Shown one piece after another: positions 399 to 53,896 of a DNA stretch of 64,000 nt; within the stretch, counting starts at the first letter, position 1; each line of letters begins with the position of its first letter. The notes beneath the pieces are model-generated. The model did no database searches. It saw only the letters and a list, made by a program, of their open reading frames with translations, and was not told where the DNA came from. The position numbers and the translations under genes are program-made. The DNA comes from Egibacter rhizosphaerae (GTDB lineage: Bacteria > Actinomycetota > Nitriliruptoria > Euzebyales > Egibacteraceae), in the NCBI RefSeq assembly GCF_004322855.1, contig NZ_CP036402.1, positions 4,216,001-4,280,000 on the forward strand. The letters are read 5' to 3'.

Positions 399-2081
399 AT
401 GACGACGGAACTCGGGCGCGTGCTCGTGAGCCGAGGTGTGGTCAGCGAGGAGCAGCTGCGCTCCGCCGTTGAGACCCAGGAGTACGAGGGGGGATCGCTC
501 GGCAAGGTGATCGTCGACCTCGGCTATGCGGCCGAGCGCGAGATCGTGCAAGCGGTGGCCGAGACCATCGGCATGCCCTTCGCCGACACCCGGCCGGGAC
601 AGGTCGATCCCGACGCCGCGGCGCTCATGCCCCAGGACGAGGCCACCCGACTGGGCGCTCTGCCGGTCGGCTTCGATCGCGACGGCAGCCTCCTGGTCGC
701 CCTCGCCGACCCCGGCAACGACGAGGCCGTCGAACGGGTGAAGGCGCTGACCGGCGTCGACGTCAGCCCCGCACTCGCCGCGCGCGGCGAGTTGCAGCAG
801 GCGATCGCCCACCTCGCCGACGCGCCCGGTTCCGCACCCGCCGATGGTGGCGCGGGTGCGCGACCCGAGCGCGAGCAGGGGGAGGCGCGCCAGAGGCCAC
901 CCGGTGGCTCGAGGGGGCTGAGCCTCGCGGAACGGTCGGACGCCGCCGAGGCTTCCCTCGCCACGGAGGCCGCCCCCGAGGGCGCCGACTCCCTGCTGGC
1001 GTACGAGCAGGGCAGCGCGATCGACCTCGACGAGGTCCTCGTGCAGATCATCAAGCGCGGCGCGAGCGACCTCCACCTCACCGCGGGCGTGCCGCCGATG
1101 CTGCGGCTGCACGGCGAGCTCGAGCCGATGGACGAGTTCGACGTGCTCACCCCGCCCGAGCTGCAGAAGATGATCTACGCGATCCTCACCCAGAAGCAGC
1201 GCGAGCAGTTCGAGAACGAGCTGGAACTCGACCTCTCCTACCAGGTCCCCAACGTCGCCCGCTTCCGTGTGAACGTCTTCCAGCAACGCGACTCGATGGG
1301 CGCCGTCATGCGCGCCATCCCCCACGAGATCTTCTCGATCGAGGACCTCGGGCTCCCGCGCGCCGTGGAGAGCCTGGCGCGGCGGCCGCGCGGCTTCGTG
1401 CTCGTGACGGGTCCGACCGGCTCGGGGAAGTCGACCACGCTCGCGTCGCTGATCGACATGGTCAACCGGGAGCGCTCGAGCCACATCATGACGATCGAGG
1501 ACCCGATCGAGTTCCTGCACACGCACAACCGCTCGATCGTGAACCAGCGCGAGCTCGGCGGGGACACCCACTCGTTCTCGGCGGCCCTCAAGCACGTGCT
1601 CCGCCAGGACCCGGACGTGATCCTCGTCGGCGAGTTGCGCGACCTCGAGACGATCCAGGTCGCCCTCACCGCCGCGGAGACCGGGCACCTCGTGTTCGGC
1701 ACCCTGCACACCCAGGACGCGCCGCAGACCATCGACCGCATGATCGACGTCTTCCCGCCGCACCAGCAGGAGCAGATCCGCGTGCAGCTCGGCGGGGCGT
1801 TGCAGGGCGTCGTCTGCCAGCAGCTGCTGAAGACGAAGGACGGCCACGGCCGCGTGCCCGCGACCGAGGTCATGATCGCGACGAGCGCGATCAAGAACCT
1901 GATCCGCGAGGGCAAGACCCACCAGATGTACTCGTCGATCCAGGCCGGCAAGGAGCACGGCATGGCGACGATGGACACGTCCCTGGCGCAGCTGGTCAAG
2001 ACCGGCAAGGTCACGTACGACGCCGCGCTCGAGAAGTGCAACAACGCCGCCGACTTCAACCGCCTCTGCGGCCGGGCCTAG
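399..2081 (+). CDS. pilT: PilT-family pilus ATPase with N-terminal MshEN domain
   Basis: 560 residues, against about 350 for ordinary PilT. The C-terminal half is PilT-like: a GASDLHLTAG opening near residue 220, Walker A GPTGSGKST at 338-346, Asp box DPDVILVGELRD at 404-415, His box TGHLVFGTLHT at 428-438, and a closing GMATMD region. PilT hexamers power pilus retraction. Residues 1 to about 60 contain two copies of the MshEN/GspE-N motif (ELGRVLV..., SLGKVIV...), normally found on the extension ATPase PilB or on MshE, where it can bind cyclic di-GMP. The usual first Arg of the motif is Glu here and Ser in the second copy. A low-complexity linker (about 140-205) joins the two parts. pilC follows after 12 bases. 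Confidence 0.9.
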   Translation: MTTELGRVLVSRGVVSEEQLRSAVETQEYEGGSLGKVIVDLGYAAEREIVQAVAETIGMPFADTRPGQVDPDAAALMPQDEATRLGALPVGFDRDGSLLVALADPGNDEAVERVKALTGVDVSPALAARGELQQAIAHLADAPGSAPADGGAGARPEREQGEARQRPPGGSRGLSLAERSDAAEASLATEAAPEGADSLLAYEQGSAIDLDEVLVQIIKRGASDLHLTAGVPPMLRLHGELEPMDEFDVLTPPELQKMIYAILTQKQREQFENELELDLSYQVPNVARFRVNVFQQRDSMGAVMRAIPHEIFSIEDLGLPRAVESLARRPRGFVLVTGPTGSGKSTTLASLIDMVNRERSSHIMTIEDPIEFLHTHNRSIVNQRELGGDTHSFSAALKHVLRQDPDVILVGELRDLETIQVALTAAETGHLVFGTLHTQDAPQTIDRMIDVFPPHQQEQIRVQLGGALQGVVCQQLLKTKDGHGRVPATEVMIATSAIKNLIREGKTHQMYSSIQAGKEHGMATMDTSLAQLVKTGKVTYDAALEKCNNAADFNRLCGRA

Positions 2082-2093
2082 GAGAGCGACGAG

Positions 2094-3335
2094 ATGGCTA
2101 CCGCGACCTTCGACTACACCGTCCGCGACCAGTCGGGCAAGACCCTCAAGGGCTCGCTCGACGGACCCGACCAGCGCGCGGTCGCAGCGAAGCTGCGTGA
2201 GATGGGGTACTCGCCCATCTCGGTGCAGCAGCAGAAGAGCTCCACGCTGCACAAGGAAGTCTCCATCCCCGGCCTGTCCGGGCGGATCAAGCTGCAGGAC
2301 CTCGCGGTCTTCAGCCGGCAGTTCGCGACGATGATCAACTCGGGGCTGTCGCTCGTGCGCGCCCTGAACATTCTCGCCGAGCAGACCGAGAACCGGAAGC
2401 TCGCCGAGATCGTCGGGGTGGTGCGCGGCCAGATCGAGCAGGGGCGGTCGCTGTCCGACTCGCTCGCCGATCACCCCGACGTGTTCCCCAAGCTGTACGT
2501 CGCGATGGTCCGCGCCGGCGAGACCGCGGGCATGCTCGACCAGGTGCTCCTGCGCGTGGCGAACACGCTCGAGAAGGACCTGGAGCTGCGCCGCAAGATC
2601 AAGACCGCGCTCACCTATCCCGTGGTCGTGGTCTGCCTGGCGATCCTGCTCACCGCCGCCATGCTGATCTTCATCGTCCCCGTGTTCGTCGACATGTTCG
2701 AGGATCTCGGAGGCGAGCTGCCGCTGCCGACGCAGATCCTGCTGTTCCTCTCAGACATCCTGCGAAGCTGGTGGTTCCTCATCCTGCCGTTGCCGATCGT
2801 GGCGTGGCAGCTGTTCAAGCAGGCCCGCAAGGACCCCAAGGTCCGCTATCAGCTGGATCGGCTGAAGCTGAAGGTGCCGGTCTTCGGCGACCTGTTCCAC
2901 AAGATCGCCCTGGCCCGCTTCAACCGGAACTTCGGGACCCTGCTGCGTGCCGGCGTCCCCATCCTCAGCGCGCTCGAGATCACGGCCGACACGGTCAACA
3001 ACGGCGTGATCTCCGATGCCGTGAAGGACGTGCAGACCGCGGTCAAGGAGGGCGAGAGCGTCGCGCGCCCGCTGAGCCAGCACGCGGTGTTCCCACCGAT
3101 GACGGTGCAGATGATCGCCGTCGGTGAGGAGACCGGCGCGATGGACGAGATGCTCGAGAAGATCGCGGACTTCTACGACGACGAGGTCGCCACGACCACC
3201 GAGTCGCTGACCGCGATGCTCGAGCCGCTCATGATCATGGTGCTCGGCGGCATCGTCGGAGCGATGGTCATCGCGCTCTACATGCCGATGTTCGAGATCT
3301 TCGACCTCGTCGACTCGGGCGCCGGCGGCATCTGA
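2094..3335 (+). CDS. pilC: Type IV pilus inner-membrane platform protein PilC
   Basis: 413 residues, the usual size. PilC/GspF proteins form the membrane platform on which the pilus ATPases act. Two T2SSF domains are visible (about 70-190 and 270-390), each with the family pattern around FSRQFATMINSGLSL and FNRNFGTLLRAGVPI. Membrane segments lie near 175-200, 227-243 and 379-400. The start codon has a GGAGAG Shine-Dalgarno just after the pilT stop, so the two genes are co-transcribed. The stop codon lies inside a unit that is repeated downstream (3327-3462). Confidence 0.95.
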   Translation: MATATFDYTVRDQSGKTLKGSLDGPDQRAVAAKLREMGYSPISVQQQKSSTLHKEVSIPGLSGRIKLQDLAVFSRQFATMINSGLSLVRALNILAEQTENRKLAEIVGVVRGQIEQGRSLSDSLADHPDVFPKLYVAMVRAGETAGMLDQVLLRVANTLEKDLELRRKIKTALTYPVVVVCLAILLTAAMLIFIVPVFVDMFEDLGGELPLPTQILLFLSDILRSWWFLILPLPIVAWQLFKQARKDPKVRYQLDRLKLKVPVFGDLFHKIALARFNRNFGTLLRAGVPILSALEITADTVNNGVISDAVKDVQTAVKEGESVARPLSQHAVFPPMTVQMIAVGEETGAMDEMLEKIADFYDDEVATTTESLTAMLEPLMIMVLGGIVGAMVIALYMPMFEIFDLVDSGAGGI

Positions 3336-3608: not shown

Positions 3609-5513
3609 TCAACGCGCCCGGAACTCGACATCGGCGAGCTCGGCCCGGAACGCGCCGCCGTCGTCGGGCAGCGACGTGAACCAGACGAGCCACACGCGCT
3701 CCTCGGCCTCGTCGTCGAGCTCGAGGGTCGTGGTCCCGTCGGCATCGGCGACGCTCGTCACCGAGACCCCCCAGTCCTCGGGAGCCTCCCCGGCGCCGGG
3801 GGGTTCCGCGCCCGCGTAGACATCGAACGACGACCCGGCGCTGGTGGACAGCGCGACCTCACTGACCGGGGCGGCCTCGTCGAGCTCGAACCAGACCCCG
3901 ACCCCCGGCTTCAGGCCGCCGAGGGCGGGATCCCCCCGGTAGCCGTGGGTCTGCCACGTCGTGTCGGGGTTGCCATCGACCGCGTTCATCACATCACCGG
4001 GGAACTCCTCCCCGCTGCCGAAGGGATCGTGGTCGCCTGCGCCGACGATCTCCACAGCCGTCGGCTCGTCTTCCTCGTCTTCCTCGTCTTCCTCGTCTTC
4101 GCCGTCGTCTTCGTCGTCGTCCTCGTCCTCGTCCTCCTCGTCGCTGGCGGCCTCGGCCTCGCCCTCGTCGTTCGCGGGCGCCTCCGCACCCGGCGGGTCA
4201 CCCTCGCTCTGCACGGCGGTGTCATCGGGCTGCTCACGGGTCACAGCGAGGATCACCCCGCTGGCGAGCAGCGCGACGGCGAACAGCGTGGCGATCCCCG
4301 CGATCACCGGACGCCGCCCCCCTCCTCGAGTGGCGGGAGTCGAGCCCGGTAAGGCCCCAACGCTTTGCGCCGGTGCGGTCGCCTCGGGGTCGTGGGAGGC
4401 GGGGGCCAGTGCGGTCGCCTCGGGGTCCTGGGAGGCGGGGGCCAGTGCGGTCGCCTCGGGGTCCTGGGAGGCGGGTGCCGGTGCGGTCGCCTCGGGGTCG
4501 TGGGAGGCGGGCTCCGGCGCGGTCACCTCTGCGCCCGGGACGGCTTGATCCTGCTGGCCGGGCCCGTCACCGGATGCGGTGCTGACGGTCGTGGGGACGA
4601 ACGACGCGGTCGGTGTGCCGGGGGCCGGCGTGGACCGTGTGCGCAGCAGGATCGCGAGGTCGCGGGCCGCGTGCGGGGCGGCGAGCGGGTTCAACGCTTC
4701 GGCCAGCCGGTGACCGTCGGCGAAGCGCTCGGCCGGTTCGAGGCGGGTCGCGCGGACCACCGCGGCGTCGAGCGCCTCCGGCACGTCGCCGCGCAGCTCG
4801 CTCGGCGCGGGCAGCTGCTCGCCGAGCCGGCGGACCGCGATCTCGGCGGTCGTCCCGTGCCCGAACGGGGCGCTCCCGGTGAGCAGCTGGTGGAGGAGCA
4901 ACCCGAGCGCGTAGACGTCCGCCCGCGCATCGAGCGGGTCGTCGCGCAGTTGCTCGGGCGCGAGATACCGGGCGGTGCCGATCACCTGTCCGGGGATGGT
5001 CAGGTGCGACGTGGCGTCGCCGAGGGCCCGGGCGACGCCGAAGTCGGCGACCTTCGCGATCCCCTCCCGCGTGAGCAGCACGTTCGCGGGCTTGACGTCG
5101 CGGTGCACGAGGCCTCGGGCGTGCGCCGCCCCGAGCGCCCCGCCGACCTGGCTGCCGAGGGCCGCGACGAGGCCCGGCGCCAGTGGGCTGTGGGGGAGCA
5201 GGTCCGCGAGCGTCCCCCCGTCGACGAGCTCCATCACCAGGAAGTCGCGTTCCTCACCGCTGCCGACGTCGTACACCGCGACGGCGTGAGGATGGCTGAG
5301 GTTCGCCGCTGCGGTAGCCTCGGCGCGGAAGCGCGTGGTCGTCTCGGGGTCCCGTGCGAGGTCCCCGTGCAGCACCTTGATCGCCACGGTGCGCTCGAGG
5401 CGACGGTCGTGGGCGCGCCACACGATCCCGGCCCCACCCGAGCCGAGACGCTCTTCGAGCACGTAGCGGCCGGCGAGCACACCGGCGCTCGGGTCGGGCG
5501 GAGTTTCGGTCAC
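3609..5513 (-). CDS. Membrane Ser/Thr protein kinase with extracytoplasmic discoidin-like domain
   Basis: 634 residues. The Hanks-type kinase domain covers about 15-275, with glycine loop GSGGAG (24-29), Lys46 in VAIK, HRD at 137-139, DFG at 157-159 and APEQ at about 185. A Pro/Ala-rich juxtamembrane part with 12-residue repeats follows (about 331-385), then one membrane helix (403-424), an almost pure Asp/Glu stretch (about 449-485) and an outside domain to the end. That last domain (DPFGSGEEFPG, AVDGNPDTTW, GGLKPGVGVWF) resembles the galactose-binding-like module at the C-terminus of actinobacterial MviN/MurJ-type proteins, so a link to cell-wall sensing is inferred. There are no PASTA repeats. 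The start is GTG. It lies 169 bases downstream of the dpp operon on the same strand. Confidence 0.92.
   Translation of the reverse strand: MTETPPDPSAGVLAGRYVLEERLGSGGAGIVWRAHDRRLERTVAIKVLHGDLARDPETTTRFRAEATAAANLSHPHAVAVYDVGSGEERDFLVMELVDGGTLADLLPHSPLAPGLVAALGSQVGGALGAAHARGLVHRDVKPANVLLTREGIAKVADFGVARALGDATSHLTIPGQVIGTARYLAPEQLRDDPLDARADVYALGLLLHQLLTGSAPFGHGTTAEIAVRRLGEQLPAPSELRGDVPEALDAAVVRATRLEPAERFADGHRLAEALNPLAAPHAARDLAILLRTRSTPAPGTPTASFVPTTVSTASGDGPGQQDQAVPGAEVTAPEPASHDPEATAPAPASQDPEATALAPASQDPEATALAPASHDPEATAPAQSVGALPGSTPATRGGGRRPVIAGIATLFAVALLASGVILAVTREQPDDTAVQSEGDPPGAEAPANDEGEAEAASDEEDEDEDDDEDDGEDEEDEEDEEDEPTAVEIVGAGDHDPFGSGEEFPGDVMNAVDGNPDTTWQTHGYRGDPALGGLKPGVGVWFELDEAAPVSEVALSTSAGSSFDVYAGAEPPGAGEAPEDWGVSVTSVADADGTTTLELDDEAEERVWLVWFTSLPDDGGAFRAELADVEFRAR
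4375..4530 (-). repeat. 36-bp tandem repeats within the kinase gene
   Basis: Four units begin at 4375, 4411, 4447 and 4483, with a degenerate fifth at 4519. Read on the minus strand each encodes a variant of PEATALAPASQD in the juxtamembrane segment. The exact 36-base period keeps the frame. Mismatches between units are few, which suggests recent expansion. Confidence 0.85.
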
Positions 5514-16546: not shown

Positions 16547-16801
16547 ATGGCCGACATCGCGGCAGCACACGCGGGGCAGGAGCCCCCGCAGCTGTGGACG
16601 GTCGCCGAGGTGGCCGAGCACATGCGCGTGTCGACCATGACGGTCTACCGCCTCATCAAGGCCGGGACGCTCCCGGCGATCCGCGTCGGTAAGAACTACC
16701 GCATCCGCGGCGGTGATCTCGCGGCCTTCCTCGAGGCCGCCGCGACGACCCAGCCGGGACAACTCAACGGTGTGTCCGGCCAGCACGAAGCGAAGGGGTA
16801 G
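16547..16801 (+). CDS. Excisionase-family helix-turn-helix protein
   Basis: 84 residues from ATG 16547 (GGGAGTGG upstream). The sequence LWTVAEVAEHMRVSTMTVYRLIKAG then LPAIRVGKNYRI is a MerR-like winged HTH of the HTH_17/excisionase family, covering nearly the whole protein. Such proteins bind DNA as architectural or regulatory factors. With no integrase nearby and pilM starting 7 bases after its stop, a regulator of the pilus operon is more likely than a phage excisionase. Confidence 0.85.
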   Translation: MADIAAAHAGQEPPQLWTVAEVAEHMRVSTMTVYRLIKAGTLPAIRVGKNYRIRGGDLAAFLEAAATTQPGQLNGVSGQHEAKG

Positions 16802-16808
16802 GTCTGCG

Positions 16809-17852
16809 ATGGCCACCACGATCGGACTCGACATCGGCTCGACCGCAGTGCGGGCCGCGCAGGTGAGCACAGGCCGCGGCCTGCCGAAGCTCGAGCGGCT
16901 CGGACAGGTGCTCCTGCCTGCCGGTGCGGTCCGCGACGGCGAGATCGAGGACCCGGAGGCGGTCGCCGAGGCGATTCGCACCCTCTGGTCCACCTACAAG
17001 CTCAAGGGCAAGAAGGTCGCGCTCGGCCTCGCGAACCAGCAGGTCGTCGTCCGCCAGATGGACCTGCCCTCGCTCCCGGAGAACGAGCTCCGCGAGTCGC
17101 TCGACTTCCAGGTGCAGGACACGATCCCGATCCCGACCGACCAGGCGGTGCTCGACTTCGTGGTCCTCGACGAGTATGAGGGACCCGAGGGCGAACCGCT
17201 CACGCGCATCCTTCTGGTCGCCGCGCAGCGCACGATGGTGGACTCCCTCGTCGACGTCGCGCAGCGCGCCAAGCTCGAGCCCACACTGCTCGACCTCGAC
17301 GCGTTCGCGGTCCTGCGGTCGATGGGCGGCAGCGAGTTCATCGGCGGCGAGGGCGCCGAGCTGCTCATCGACGTGGGCGGGTCGGTGACCAACCTCATCG
17401 TCCACGAGAACGGCCGGCCGCTGTTCGTCCGCATCCTGCTGATGGGCGGCGACGACATCACGTCGACGCTGACCGCGAGCCTCGGCCTCTCGTTCGAGCA
17501 GGCCGAGCAGCTCAAGGCCCAGCACGGCTACCACGACGATCCGCAGGACGACGTCGGCACGCTCATCAGCGAGCGCGCGACCCGCTTCGTCGACGAGATC
17601 CGCGGGTCGATCGACTACTACCACGCGCAGGTCGAGGCGATCCCGGTCCGGCGGGCCATGCTCGCCGGCGGCGGCAGCCTCCTGCCGCGCCTCGCCGACC
17701 AGCTGTCCGACGCGCTCGGCGTCGAGGTCACCCGCGGGCGACCGACTGCCGAGCTCGAGACCGACAAGGCGCCGACCGCCCCCGGGGAGCTCGACGAGGC
17801 CGAGCCCTTCCTCGCGGTCGCGATCGGCCTGGCCATGGGGGCCGCGGAATGA
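16809..17852 (+). CDS. pilM: Type IV pilus assembly protein PilM
   Basis: 347 residues from ATG 16809, at the start of the conserved TTIGLDIGSTAVRAAQV. PilM is an actin-like cytoplasmic ATP-binding protein that docks on the N-terminus of PilN. Phosphate-binding segments GLDIGST and LLIDVGGSVTNLIV, and an adenosine-type AMLAGGGSLLPRL near the end, are visible. The stop overlaps the pilN start (ATGA). Confidence 0.95.
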   Translation: MATTIGLDIGSTAVRAAQVSTGRGLPKLERLGQVLLPAGAVRDGEIEDPEAVAEAIRTLWSTYKLKGKKVALGLANQQVVVRQMDLPSLPENELRESLDFQVQDTIPIPTDQAVLDFVVLDEYEGPEGEPLTRILLVAAQRTMVDSLVDVAQRAKLEPTLLDLDAFAVLRSMGGSEFIGGEGAELLIDVGGSVTNLIVHENGRPLFVRILLMGGDDITSTLTASLGLSFEQAEQLKAQHGYHDDPQDDVGTLISERATRFVDEIRGSIDYYHAQVEAIPVRRAMLAGGGSLLPRLADQLSDALGVEVTRGRPTAELETDKAPTAPGELDEAEPFLAVAIGLAMGAAE

Positions 17853-18499
17853 ACAGCGTGCGCGTCAACCTCCTCCCCAAGGACCTCTTCGAGCAGGCGC
17901 GTGCGCGCCGCGTCGCACGCGGCTCCTACGTGGGCCTCGCGGTGTTCGTCCTCGCGCTCGCCGGCGTCTACGGGCACGGCTGGAACCAGGTGCGCCTCGC
18001 CGAGGAGGAGCGCGAGGCGGCCCAGGCCGAGGTCTCACAGCTCCAGGCCGAGCTCGCCGAGCTCGAGGAGTACCGCGAGCTCGCCGAACGCCTCGACGCC
18101 CGCAACCAGACCCTGGCGACCGCGATGAGCGACGAGATCTCGTGGGCACGGATCCTCAACGACCTCGCCCTCACCTTCCCGTCGGACTCCTCGCTGCTGT
18201 CGCTGGACACGATGGCCAACGACGTCGAGGAGCCCGAGGAAGGCGAGATCGACCCGGGCCACAGCGTCGGGGAGATGACCGTCACCGGCTACTCCATCGA
18301 GGAGTACGCCCCCGGTGTCGAGTCGGTGCTCATCGACTTCGAGAGCGCGCGCGGGTTCTTCAACAGCTACCTGCAGACCGCCACCGCGGACGAGCGCGCC
18401 GACAGCGAGATCACCACCTTCAGCGGAACGATCGACCTCGATGACGATGCCCGGACCGGCCGCTACACCGACGGCCTGCCGGCGGAGGTGACGGAATGA
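17849..18499 (+). CDS. pilN: Type IV pilus assembly protein PilN
   Basis: 216 residues. The N-terminus VRVNLLPKDLFEQ is the PilM-binding INLLP motif. One membrane helix (about 26-45) and a coiled coil (about 50-90) follow, then a ferredoxin-like extracytoplasmic domain. PilN pairs with PilO in the alignment complex. It overlaps pilM and pilO by 4 bases each, showing a tightly coupled operon. Confidence 0.92.
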   Translation: MNSVRVNLLPKDLFEQARARRVARGSYVGLAVFVLALAGVYGHGWNQVRLAEEEREAAQAEVSQLQAELAELEEYRELAERLDARNQTLATAMSDEISWARILNDLALTFPSDSSLLSLDTMANDVEEPEEGEIDPGHSVGEMTVTGYSIEEYAPGVESVLIDFESARGFFNSYLQTATADERADSEITTFSGTIDLDDDARTGRYTDGLPAEVTE

Positions 18500-19224
18500 G
18501 GACACGCGCACCGATCATCGCCGGCCTCCTGGCGGTCGCGCTCGGCGCGGGCTTCTGGTTCTTCCTGTACCAGCCGCAGACCGAGAACCGCGAGGAGATC
18601 GAGGAGGAGACCGCGCAGCTCGAGGCCGAGGCCGGGCAGCTGCGAAACGAGATCGCGCACCTGCGCGAGATCAAGGAGAACGAGATCGAGTACGAGGCGC
18701 GGCTGGCCCGGCTCGAGGAGTACGTCCCCCACGGCGTCCAGCAGCCCTCGGCGCTGCGCGAGTTCCAGCAGACCGCCGACTCGGCCGGGGTCGAGATCAG
18801 CGATCTCTCGTTCGGCGACCCGGTCGCCGTCGAGGACGCACCCGACACCGGCGAGCCCGAGACGACGCTGGCCGAGATCAACGTCTCGATGAGCTTGCAG
18901 GGCGGCTACTTCCAACTCGTGGACCTGCTCCGAAGGCTCGAGGTGGACGTCGCCCGTGCGCTGCTTGTCGACTCCGTCAACCTGACCGAGGGCGAGGACG
19001 GCTTCCCCGATCTCCGGGGCACGTGGAACGGGCGGATGTTCGCCGTGGTCGACATCGCCAGCGCGGGCGACCCGGGCGAGGAAGGCGCCGGCGACCTGCC
19101 GGACCTCGAGGACGGGGACGAACTCGACGAGGATGAACTCGACGACGCCGATGAGGATGGCGACGCCGAGCCGGACGACCTCGATAACGAGGACGACGAG
19201 GACGAGGAGGTCGCGAACCGATGA
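18496..19224 (+). CDS. pilO: Type IV pilus assembly protein PilO
   Basis: 242 residues: a short cytoplasmic tail, a membrane helix (about 7-24, IIAGLLAVALGAGFWFFLY), a coiled coil (about 28-80) and a PilO domain with the VPHGVQQPSALREFQQTAD pattern. The last 45 residues are an Asp/Glu-rich tail not usual for PilO. PilO forms heterodimers with PilN. Confidence 0.9.
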   Translation: MRTRAPIIAGLLAVALGAGFWFFLYQPQTENREEIEEETAQLEAEAGQLRNEIAHLREIKENEIEYEARLARLEEYVPHGVQQPSALREFQQTADSAGVEISDLSFGDPVAVEDAPDTGEPETTLAEINVSMSLQGGYFQLVDLLRRLEVDVARALLVDSVNLTEGEDGFPDLRGTWNGRMFAVVDIASAGDPGEEGAGDLPDLEDGDELDEDELDDADEDGDAEPDDLDNEDDEDEEVANR

Positions 19225-23141: not shown

Positions 23142-24308
23142 TCAGGACGCCGGGCCGTGCAGCGCGCACGAGGCCTGCCCCGGGCCGGGGGCGAGGCGGG
23201 ACTTGCCCGCGGCCTTCGCGTCGTAGAGCGCGTGATCGGCCGCGCGGAACAGCCCCTCGGCCTCCGCGGCGTCCTCCGGTGCCACCGCCATCCCGGCGGA
23301 CAGCGTCACCGCCGGCAGGTCCTCGCGTCGTTGCCGCTCGACCGCCCGCGCGCAGCGGCGCAGGGCGGTCTGCGCCTGCGCGCGGCTCGCCCCCGGCATC
23401 AGGATCGCGAACTCGTCGCCGCCGAAGCGGAACACCGCGTCGGTCTCCCGTGTCGACCGGGCCAACCGGTCGGCGATGTGGGTGAGCACCAGGTCGCCGA
23501 CGGCGTGGCCGTACCGATCGTTTACCGCCTTGTAGTCGTCGATGTCGACGGCCGCGAGGGTGACGGGACGTTCGGGAGTCGCGTCCTCGAGGGCGGTGCG
23601 CAGCGCGTCCCAGAACACCCGTCGGTTGCGCAGGCCCGTCAGCGCGTCGCGCTCGGCGGCCGCGCGGGCGTCCTCGTAGAGGCGCGCATTGCGCAACGCC
23701 AGCGCGGTGACGTGCGCGAGCTCGAGCACGTCCTCGGCGTGGTGGCTCGCGAACGCGCCTGGCTCGTCGCTCGCCGCCACGACCACGAGGTGCGGGCTGG
23801 GGGAGTCCGCCTCCCCGCCCGGAAGGTGGCCGGCGAGCAGCAGCGACCGCATCCCCGGGTGGGCGACACCCGACAGTTCGGGCGTGGCCTCGGTGTCGTC
23901 GACCCAGGCGGTGCCCTCGGCGCGGACACGGTCGAGCAGCGCCGCCAGCGAGGCGTCGAGCGGGACCCGCCAGAACGGGATCGCGAGCTGCCCGCCGCGA
24001 CCCTCCTCGTCGAGGTCGCTGCTGAGCAGGTCCGCCGACTCCCCGGAGACCTCGAAGACCGACACGGCCGAGGCCGGGGTGCGGCTGCGCACCGCCTCCG
24101 ACACCCGATCGAAGACGGCCTCGAAGTCGAGCGTCTCGGCCATCTGGCGGGTGAGGGCCTGCAGTTCGCGCATCCGGGTGAGGGGGTCCGGGCGCGCGTC
24201 GGCATTCGTGGACGCCCGCGTCGTGTCCTGTTCGGCGTCTGTCGAGGCCTGCGTGGCGTCCTGTTCGGCGTTGGCGGAGGCCTGCGTTCCGCGCTGCTCG
24301 ACGCTCAC
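23142..24308 (-). CDS. GAF-GGDEF diguanylate cyclase
   Basis: 388 residues from GTG 24308; longer starts are possible, so the N-terminus is uncertain. A low-complexity region with 11-residue repeats comes first, then a GAF-like domain (about 50-215) and a GGDEF domain. The active site is intact (FGGDEF, 296-300) and the inhibitory I-site RETD lies five residues before it (287-290), so it should make cyclic di-GMP with product feedback. It is soluble. It lies antisense between aroB and aroQ, which are neighbours in related genomes, so it looks like an insertion into the aro cluster. Confidence 0.9.
   Translation of the reverse strand: MSVEQRGTQASANAEQDATQASTDAEQDTTRASTNADARPDPLTRMRELQALTRQMAETLDFEAVFDRVSEAVRSRTPASAVSVFEVSGESADLLSSDLDEEGRGGQLAIPFWRVPLDASLAALLDRVRAEGTAWVDDTEATPELSGVAHPGMRSLLLAGHLPGGEADSPSPHLVVVAASDEPGAFASHHAEDVLELAHVTALALRNARLYEDARAAAERDALTGLRNRRVFWDALRTALEDATPERPVTLAAVDIDDYKAVNDRYGHAVGDLVLTHIADRLARSTRETDAVFRFGGDEFAILMPGASRAQAQTALRRCARAVERQRREDLPAVTLSAGMAVAPEDAAEAEGLFRAADHALYDAKAAGKSRLAPGPGQASCALHGPAS
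24211..24302 (-). repeat. 33-bp tandem repeats in the diguanylate cyclase N-terminus
   Basis: Two full units (24211-24243, 24244-24276) and a partial third encode variants of AEQDATQASTD. The unit length keeps the reading frame. They lie just after the chosen start, before the GAF domain. Confidence 0.75.
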
Positions 24309-52801: not shown

Positions 52802-53896
52802 ATGGCTGAGCGAATCCTCGTGGTGGACCACGAACCGGAGACCCGCCGGTTCGTGGAGGTCAACCTGCGCTTGTCGGGCTACGACGTCGAGACCGCCGAG
52901 ACCGGCCGGCAGGCACTCGCGTTCGCGCGGGAGTCGACCCCGGACCTCGTCGTGACCGATGTGGCCACCCCGGACATGGACGGCTGCGAGATGATCCGTG
53001 CTCTGCGCGCACGCGGTGCGACGAGCCACGTGCCCGTGATCGTGCTGACATCGCGGGCGCTGACGGGGGACCGCGTGCTCGGCCTGACCGCCGGTGCCGA
53101 CGATTACCTGCGCAAGCCGTGCGACCCGGCCGAGCTCGTCGCGAGGGCCCGCTCGCTCCTGAACCGAGTCGGTGAACTGCGGGCCACCTCGCCGCTCACG
53201 GGGCTGCCCGGCAACCACCGGATCGATCGGGAGCTCGCGCGCCGCGTCGGTCAGCGCGAGCCGTTGGCGCTGGCGTACGCGGACCTGAACCACTTCAAGA
53301 CGTTCAACGACCGGTACGGGTTCCTGCGGGGCGACGACGTGCTCGCGTTGACCGCACAAGTGACCCGCGACGCCGTCGCCACCTGCGGCGACCCGGAGGC
53401 GTTCGCCGGCCACATCGGCGGCGACGACTTCATGGTGCTGCTGGCACCCGACTGCGTCACCGGCCTGTGCGAGACGATCATCGCCGAGTTCGACCGGCAG
53501 GTGCCGTCGCTGTACGACGACGAGGACGCGGCACGTGGGTACCTGGAGCTCGAGGACCGCCGCGGGCGCGCGCACCGAGCCGCCATCGTGTCGATCGCCA
53601 TCGGCGTGGCGACCACCGAGCGTCGCTGGTTCGCCGACCATCGGGCGATCGTCGAGGTGGCGACGGAGCTGAAGACGTTCGTGAAGCACAACCGGCCCGG
53701 CTCGGCCTACGCCATCGACGGGCGCCGCGATCACGGTCCGCCGGCGCCACGAACCGAGCACGACGGGCACGACGGGGTGGACGCGATGGACGGGCCGAAC
53801 GGCGAGTCGTCCGTGACGCGCGACCGCGACCACGCGGCGGTAGGCTTCGGCGGGAACGCGTCCGCGGGGCAGGGTGAAATCCCCGACCGGCGGTGA
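52802..53896 (+). CDS. Response regulator with GGDEF-type output domain
   Basis: 364 residues from ATG 52802 (GGAGG at good spacing). The receiver domain has phosphoacceptor Asp53 in VVTDVATPDMDG, LTS and RKP, but the acidic pocket reads VDHEP instead of VDDE. The output domain has GGDDF (206-210) in place of GGDEF, so cyclase activity is possible but uncertain. The C-terminal 60 residues are His/Asp/Gly-rich. The last codons (GQGEIPDRR) and the stop are part of the FMN riboswitch aptamer. No kinase gene is adjacent. Confidence 0.88.
   Translation: MAERILVVDHEPETRRFVEVNLRLSGYDVETAETGRQALAFARESTPDLVVTDVATPDMDGCEMIRALRARGATSHVPVIVLTSRALTGDRVLGLTAGADDYLRKPCDPAELVARARSLLNRVGELRATSPLTGLPGNHRIDRELARRVGQREPLALAYADLNHFKTFNDRYGFLRGDDVLALTAQVTRDAVATCGDPEAFAGHIGGDDFMVLLAPDCVTGLCETIIAEFDRQVPSLYDDEDAARGYLELEDRRGRAHRAAIVSIAIGVATTERRWFADHRAIVEVATELKTFVKHNRPGSAYAIDGRRDHGPPAPRTEHDGHDGVDAMDGPNGESSVTRDRDHAAVGFGGNASAGQGEIPDRR

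What the first reader, a model, noticed from the sequence alone, without database searches (positions are those of the whole stretch)
399..2081. Retraction-type pilus ATPase carrying a cyclic-di-GMP-type MshEN domain
The catalytic half reads as PilT, yet the N-terminus has two 24-residue MshEN motifs (LG-x2-L/V-V-x2-G-V-V-x4-L-x3-V-x2-Q in the first), a domain known on PilB/MshE extension ATPases, where it can bind cyclic di-GMP. The guanine-contacting Arg of the motif is replaced (Glu, Ser), so binding may be altered. A retraction motor with a second-messenger domain would be an unusual way to tune pilus dynamics.
Basis: partly seen in the sequence, partly recalled or inferred. Interest (0 to 1): 0.72.

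Follow-up and report, generated by a model that had tools for sequence, protein, structure and literature searches.

The report
Pilus-retraction motor with added sensor domain
This is the motor protein that pulls type IV pili back into the cell, in a poorly studied actinobacterium, and it carries a cyclic-di-GMP-receptor-type domain (MshEN) that published work says only the opposite, pilus-extending motor has; an old branch of actinobacteria shares the arrangement, so pilus retraction itself may be under direct signal or docking control there.

Summary
Window 399-2081 (+) encodes a 560-aa protein: an MshEN domain (residues 4-144), a disordered linker (about 143-198) and a PilT core (210-551). 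Profiles, structure prediction and fold search agree; the core is PilT, not PilB. It is no accident of one genome. The same architecture runs through the class Nitriliruptoria and recurs in several other actinobacterial lineages, with pilB often directly upstream. Trees put all PilT-borne MshEN domains on one side of all PilB-borne ones, which fits one old acquisition followed by losses. This genome's other PilT-family protein lacks both MshEN and the AIRNLIRE motif, so the fused protein is probably the main retraction motor. Across the family the pocket is only patchily kept. Best explanation: a transplanted docking and regulatory module that controls how PilT engages the pilus platform, with c-di-GMP control in some members, possibly this one (untested). 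Papers found state that PilT lacks this domain. Other phyla could not be surveyed systematically. New variant of a known kind.

The parts
399..2081 (+). MshEN-PilT fusion gene (560 aa), type IVa pilus retraction ATPase with N-terminal MshEN domain
   Evidence: RBS GGGAGAGG just upstream
408..479 (+). MshEN motif I, residues 4-27, ELGRVLVSRGVVSEEQLRSAVETQ
   Evidence: NF053729 hit 5-55; alignment
495..566 (+). MshEN motif II, residues 33-56, SLGKVIVDLGYAAEREIVQAVAET
   Evidence: NF053729 hit 5-55; alignment
570..830 (+). MshEN C-subdomain, residues 58-144
   Evidence: PF05157, 60.9 bits; model and fold search
825..992 (+). disordered Ala/Gly/Pro/Glu-rich linker, about residues 143-198
   Evidence: pLDDT below 50 at model residues 140-195
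1026..2051 (+). PilT motor core, residues 210-551
   Evidence: TIGR01420, 494.8 bits; Foldseek to Geobacter PilT4
1410..1436 (+). Walker A GPTGSGKST (residues 338-346)
   Evidence: sequence and alignment
1887..1910 (+). AIRNLIRE-type PilT motif (AIKNLIRE, residues 497-504)
   Evidence: sequence and alignment
2094..3335 (+). pilC, inner-membrane platform protein, 12 bases after the pilT stop
   Evidence: NF052606/NF052607, 441/435 bits (below their equivalog cut-off of 700); PF00482 twice
16713..17852 (+). pilM, the only PilM match in the genome
   Evidence: PF11104, 180 bits
17849..18499 (+). pilN by position (no family hit)
   Evidence: position between pilM and pilO; no Pfam hit
18496..19224 (+). 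pilO
   Evidence: PF04350, E 1.4e-6

Best explanation
This is the main retraction motor (PilT) of a type IVa pilus, carrying an MshEN domain acquired once from a PilB-type ATPase in an ancestor of much of the Actinomycetota. The domain sits on a flexible linker of about 55 residues, so copies could reach from the motor ring to the membrane platform. Most likely it works as a docking and regulatory module, as in PilB/GspE: it engages the PilM/PilC platform or shapes the hexamer, and so sets how PilT competes with PilB for the machine. In members that keep the pocket, perhaps including this one, c-di-GMP would bias that engagement. Shown here: architecture, PilT identity, inheritance, grouping of the domain apart from PilB's, MshEN fold. 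Inferred: docking, competition, any ligand effect.
For: PilT core. MshEN fold: isolated-domain model mean pLDDT 96.3, best match c-di-GMP-bound MshE 5htl, E 2e-11. Architecture in all 25 aligned members and across Nitriliruptoria plus other families. PilT-borne MshEN domains form one side of the tree against PilB-borne ones (one search support 91; 90/94). pilB directly upstream of the fused pilT in many relatives. The other PilT-family protein in this genome lacks MshEN and AIRNLIRE. GSPII domains of Thermus PilF: GSPII-C is needed for PilMN stimulation, and XpsE/EpsE bind PilM homologues through their N-termini (PMC6325625). Motors are thought to compete for the platform (PMC9815625). PilM is present once; 28 GGDEF matches over cut-off but one PilZ.
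Against: No binding, docking or motility data exist. PilT without MshEN retracts pili in model bacteria, so the domain is not required for retraction as such; several related lineages lack it. Positions conserved in PilB's C-subdomain (R at column 81, D at columns 108-109) are mostly changed in PilT, so it may not contact the same surface as PilB's domain.
Confidence: 0.55

Rival explanations
1. Direct c-di-GMP sensor on the retraction motor: the MshEN domain of this protein binds c-di-GMP through the standard pocket and switches retraction on or off, so the messenger acts on retraction rather than (or as well as) extension.
For: Of 12 key Leu/Gly/Gln positions, 11 are consensus or aliphatic; only the second Gln is lost. 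The same genome's PilB keeps 8 of 12, and an orphan PilB-like protein 11 of 12. All four glycines kept. The genome has 28 GGDEF matches over cut-off. Arg is dispensable in Thermus PilF GSPII-B. Top fold match is the c-di-GMP-bound form of MshE.
Against: Glu and Ser at the stacking positions are outside the extended consensus (R/K/L); three triangle Leu are Val/Ile/Val; only 6 of 44 PilT-borne domains keep 11 of 12 or more. Closest solved sequence is Thermus GSPII-A, which does not bind.
Confidence: 0.35
2. The domain is a leftover or purely structural: it stabilises the hexamer or is drifting without a regulatory role.
For: Lost or truncated in several lineages; faster divergence than the rest: 25-53% identity to the window in the domain against 51-69% over the whole chain; pocket patchy.
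Against: Kept with an intact fold through a whole class; pocket positions are no more variable than in PilB (mean entropy 1.70 against 1.76 bits); L2, L6, L17, A51, A98 and P102 of the domain are invariant in 25 members.
Confidence: 0.2
3. The protein is really an extension or bifunctional motor.
For: It has the N-domain typical of PilB and sits beside pilC.
Against: Core scores, AIRNLIRE motif, structure and tree are PilT; a full PilB lies about 5-7 kb upstream.
Confidence: 0.04
4. Recent capture of the neighbouring PilB's N-domain within Nitriliruptoria rather than one old acquisition.
For: AU test does not firmly reject grouping Nitriliruptoria PilT and PilB MshEN domains (p 0.077); pilB is usually near.
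Against: Best trees have all PilT-borne domains together, and the tree with the Nitriliruptoria domains held together is 22 log units worse.
Confidence: 0.12

Closest known systems
PilT (TIGR01420), e.g. Geobacter PilT4 (6ojx), P. aeruginosa PilT (3jvv)
   Same: Motor core of about 345 residues, about 52% identical in fold alignment; Walker A, Walker B and AIRNLIRE motifs; context with pilC and pilMNO
   Different: Known PilT is about 345-380 aa with no N-terminal MshEN; here about 200 extra residues
MshE / PilB / Thermus PilF extension ATPases with MshEN (GSPII, N1D) domains
   Same: Same N-terminal domain fold, two 24-residue motifs with 5-residue spacer, joined to a PilT/VirB11-like ATPase
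   Different: Their motor is the extension type; C-subdomain signature positions mostly changed here; Arg positions Glu/Ser
X. campestris XpsE N-domain and Thermus PilF GSPII-A (MshEN folds that do not bind c-di-GMP)
   Same: MshEN fold without full consensus; likely docking role
   Different: The window protein keeps all four Gly and aliphatic triangles, which XpsE lost
MshEN fused to other domains (NfrB glycosyltransferase, REC, HD-GYP, kinase; Wang 2016)
   Same: Shows the domain is portable
   Different: No PilT retraction ATPase is mentioned in the main text; the paper's supplementary tables were not read

Membership tests
PilT retraction ATPase | Full-length match to TIGR01420 over cut-off and well above PilB models | tested here: met
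   494.8 bits against cut-off 319; PilB 206 against cut-off 676
PilT retraction ATPase | Walker A, Walker B, His box and C-terminal AIRNLIRE-type motif | tested here: met
   GPTGSGKST, VILVGELRD, HTQDAPQTIDR, AIKNLIRE
PilT retraction ATPase | Core groups with PilT; structure matches PilT before PilU and PilB | tested here: met
PilT retraction ATPase | Powers pilus retraction in the cell | not testable with these tools
   needs a mutant and pilus imaging
PilT retraction ATPase | Lacks an N-terminal GSPII/MshEN domain (as stated in PMC11656802 and PMC4624772) | tested here: not met
   MshEN present; this makes it a variant, the core being PilT
MshEN domain (PF05157 / NF053729) | Profile match over curated cut-offs | tested here: met
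   60.9 over 23.1 bits; 49.3 over 38 bits
MshEN domain (PF05157 / NF053729) | Four-helix N-subdomain plus C-subdomain fold | tested here: met
   model mean pLDDT 96; 5htl best match
c-di-GMP-binding MshEN | Two copies of (R/K/L)LGxxhhxxGhhxxxxLxxxLxxQ | tested here: inconclusive
   14 of 22 strict positions; 11 of 12 Leu/Gly/Gln positions if aliphatic substitutes are allowed; R/K/L absent twice
c-di-GMP-binding MshEN | Measured c-di-GMP binding | not testable with these tools
   needs ITC or DRaCALA
PilB / MshE extension ATPase | Motor core scores as PilB (TIGR02538 cut-off 676) | tested here: not met
   206 bits

The most novel reading that the evidence does not exclude
In these actinobacteria c-di-GMP acts directly on the retraction motor: the pocket is better kept in PilT than in the same genome's PilB, so the messenger would tune pilus retraction rather than extension, the reverse of the MshE rule.
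Probability: 0.25. Interest if true: 0.8.

Novelty: new variant of a known kind. Interest (0 to 1): 0.5.

Why it matters
A review uses the GSPII/MshEN domain to tell extension from retraction motors, and one primary paper argues that PilT is unlikely to be c-di-GMP controlled because it lacks it. A retraction motor that has carried the domain through a class of bacteria breaks that rule and gives a direct test of what the domain does: the same module on opposing motors of one machine separates docking from nucleotide sensing. It also warns against naming motors by the presence of MshEN.

Tried and rejected
The idea that the pocket has decayed much more in PilT than in PilB: entropy is about equal, though near-full consensus is rarer. 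The idea that PilB motifs differ according to whether PilT carries MshEN: means 14.9 and 15.1, few loci, no pattern. Fusion artefact or frameshift: rejected, since open frame, RBS and conserved architecture hold. Literature: searches for PilT with MshEN/GSPII or c-di-GMP, and by lineage, gave no report of such a protein. Rubrobacter MAG L051 as a real carrier: doubtful, a 3.1-kb contig in a genome that also has ordinary PilT.

Full report
What is there. Window 399-2081 on the + strand encodes 560 aa with an ATG start and the Shine-Dalgarno-like GGGAGAGG before it. The window is positions 4,216,001-4,280,000 of a single-contig 4.64-Mb genome.

Domain check. Residues 58-144 match Pfam MshEN (60.9 bits) and 5-55 match the NCBIfam c-di-GMP-binding MshE-related motif domain (49.3 over a cut-off of 38); residues 210-551 match the PilT/PilU model at 494.8 bits over 319, and PilB at 206 against 676. 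Against solved structures the whole chain finds PilT first (401 bits) and PilB far lower (170), while residues 1-150 alone find Thermus PilF, MshE and PilB N-domains. AlphaFold2 gives a confident MshEN domain, a disordered linker and a confident motor core; fold search puts the core on Geobacter PilT4 and the isolated domain on c-di-GMP-bound MshE 5htl. All 25 aligned relatives carry both MshEN and PilT matches. Chance is excluded.

Which PilT. The genome has one other PilT-family protein (2,345,210 +), 45% identical in the core, without MshEN. It and its actinobacterial relatives lack the AIRNLIRE motif, having for example TTRLYDFVVDPDK in its place; its best solved relative is 5fl3, Thermus PilT2. 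The fused protein has AIKNLIRE and sits 12 bases before pilC; a full PilB with its own MshEN lies about 5-7 kb upstream; pilM and pilO are at 16.7-19.2 kb. So the fused protein is most likely the main retraction motor. That the AIRNLIRE motif matters for retraction is from general knowledge, not tested here.

Distribution. Full-length relatives at 58-67% identity occur through the class; others at about 54% occur in further actinobacterial families, and Acidimicrobiia MAGs carry it too. Other actinobacteria (Thermoleophilia, Solirubrobacterales, Nocardioides, Microbacteriaceae) and all non-actinobacterial loci in hand have PilT with no detectable MshEN. In the core tree all MshEN-bearing rows lie within one set of 81-82 rows (support 82-92) that also holds lineages without it. 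In the MshEN tree all 43 PilT-borne domains are one side of a branch against all PilB-borne ones (support 91; 90/94 in a careful tree). This fits one old acquisition and several losses. The support is moderate, and a test of recent capture inside Nitriliruptoria gave p 0.077, so that is not firmly excluded. Some rows counted as lacking the domain are cut by contig ends (L040, L093).

Ligand pocket. Binding uses two motifs, (R/K/L)LGxxhhxxGhhxxxxLxxxLxxQ in the extended form (PMC11731258; PMC5013675). The window protein has Glu and Ser at the stacking positions, keeps all four glycines, fills the Leu triangles with Leu/Val/Leu and Leu/Ile/Val, keeps the first Gln and loses the second (Thr). Strict score 14 of 22; with aliphatic substitutes 11 of 12 key positions; its own PilB 8 of 12 and an orphan PilB-like ATPase 11 of 12. 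Over the family 6 of 44 PilT-borne and 27 of 82 PilB-borne domains keep 11 or 12. XpsE, a known non-binder, has harsher changes (G11V, L29R, G40L, L54H, Q61V). Binding in this protein is therefore open, neither shown nor excluded.

How it likely works. MshEN domains of PilB/GspE-type ATPases contact PilM-type partners and pass signals to the motor: in Thermus PilF, GSPII-C is required for PilMN to stimulate ATPase activity (PMC6325625). Extension and retraction motors are thought to compete for the platform (PMC9815625). A PilT with such a domain on a flexible tether could dock on, or be regulated through, the same platform. The PilB-typical positions of the C-subdomain (R at column 81, D at 108-109) are mostly changed in PilT, so the contact may differ. 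The genome has 28 GGDEF matches over cut-off but one PilZ and three MshEN proteins, so c-di-GMP is very probably made and few known receptors of these two kinds exist.

Against the literature. [quoted passage not shown] No report of an MshEN-bearing PilT was found; subscription papers and supplementary tables were not searchable.

Verdict. Real, conserved, and contrary to a stated rule, but built of two known parts, with function untested: a new variant of a known kind.

Noticed in passing
L010:11-3143 (G000:C1:4204011-4207143), upstream of the window: Roadblock/LC7 protein, DUF4388 protein and a Ras-like/ATP_bind_1 GTPase in a row, shortly before pilin-like genes and pilB: an MglA/MglB-like polarity module may be linked to this pilus.
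   Followed up: partly
L010:7137-12165 (G000:C1:4211137-4216165): pilB and the fused pilT are separated by about 5.3 kb including pilin-like genes on the opposite strand, whereas in many relatives pilB is directly upstream of pilT.
   Followed up: partly
L012:7323-10709 (-) (G000:C1:3844323-3847709): Orphan PilB-like ATPase with the best c-di-GMP motif in the genome (19 of 22) and a C-terminal tail of CxxC pairs that looks like a double zinc ribbon.
   Followed up: partly
whole genome G000: 28 GGDEF matches over cut-off (two in the window, near 23199-23654 - and 53192-53446 +) but only one PilZ protein: c-di-GMP receptors are largely unaccounted for.
   Followed up: partly
L011:10201-11280 (G000:C1:2345201-2346280): Second PilT-family ATPase, away from pil genes, in which the AIRNLIRE motif is replaced; a family found in other actinobacteria too.
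   Followed up: partly
L124 / L051 (G325 contig 484, 3114 bases): MshEN-PilT in a 'Rubrobacter' MAG that also has ordinary PilT on other contigs: probably mis-binned.
   Followed up: partly
L037, L053, L137: PilT proteins with only half an MshEN domain left (or half detectable), possibly loss in progress.
   Followed up: no
window 3609-5513 (-): Ser/Thr protein kinase convergent with pilC, with a long acidic Glu/Asp run after the kinase domain.
   Followed up: no
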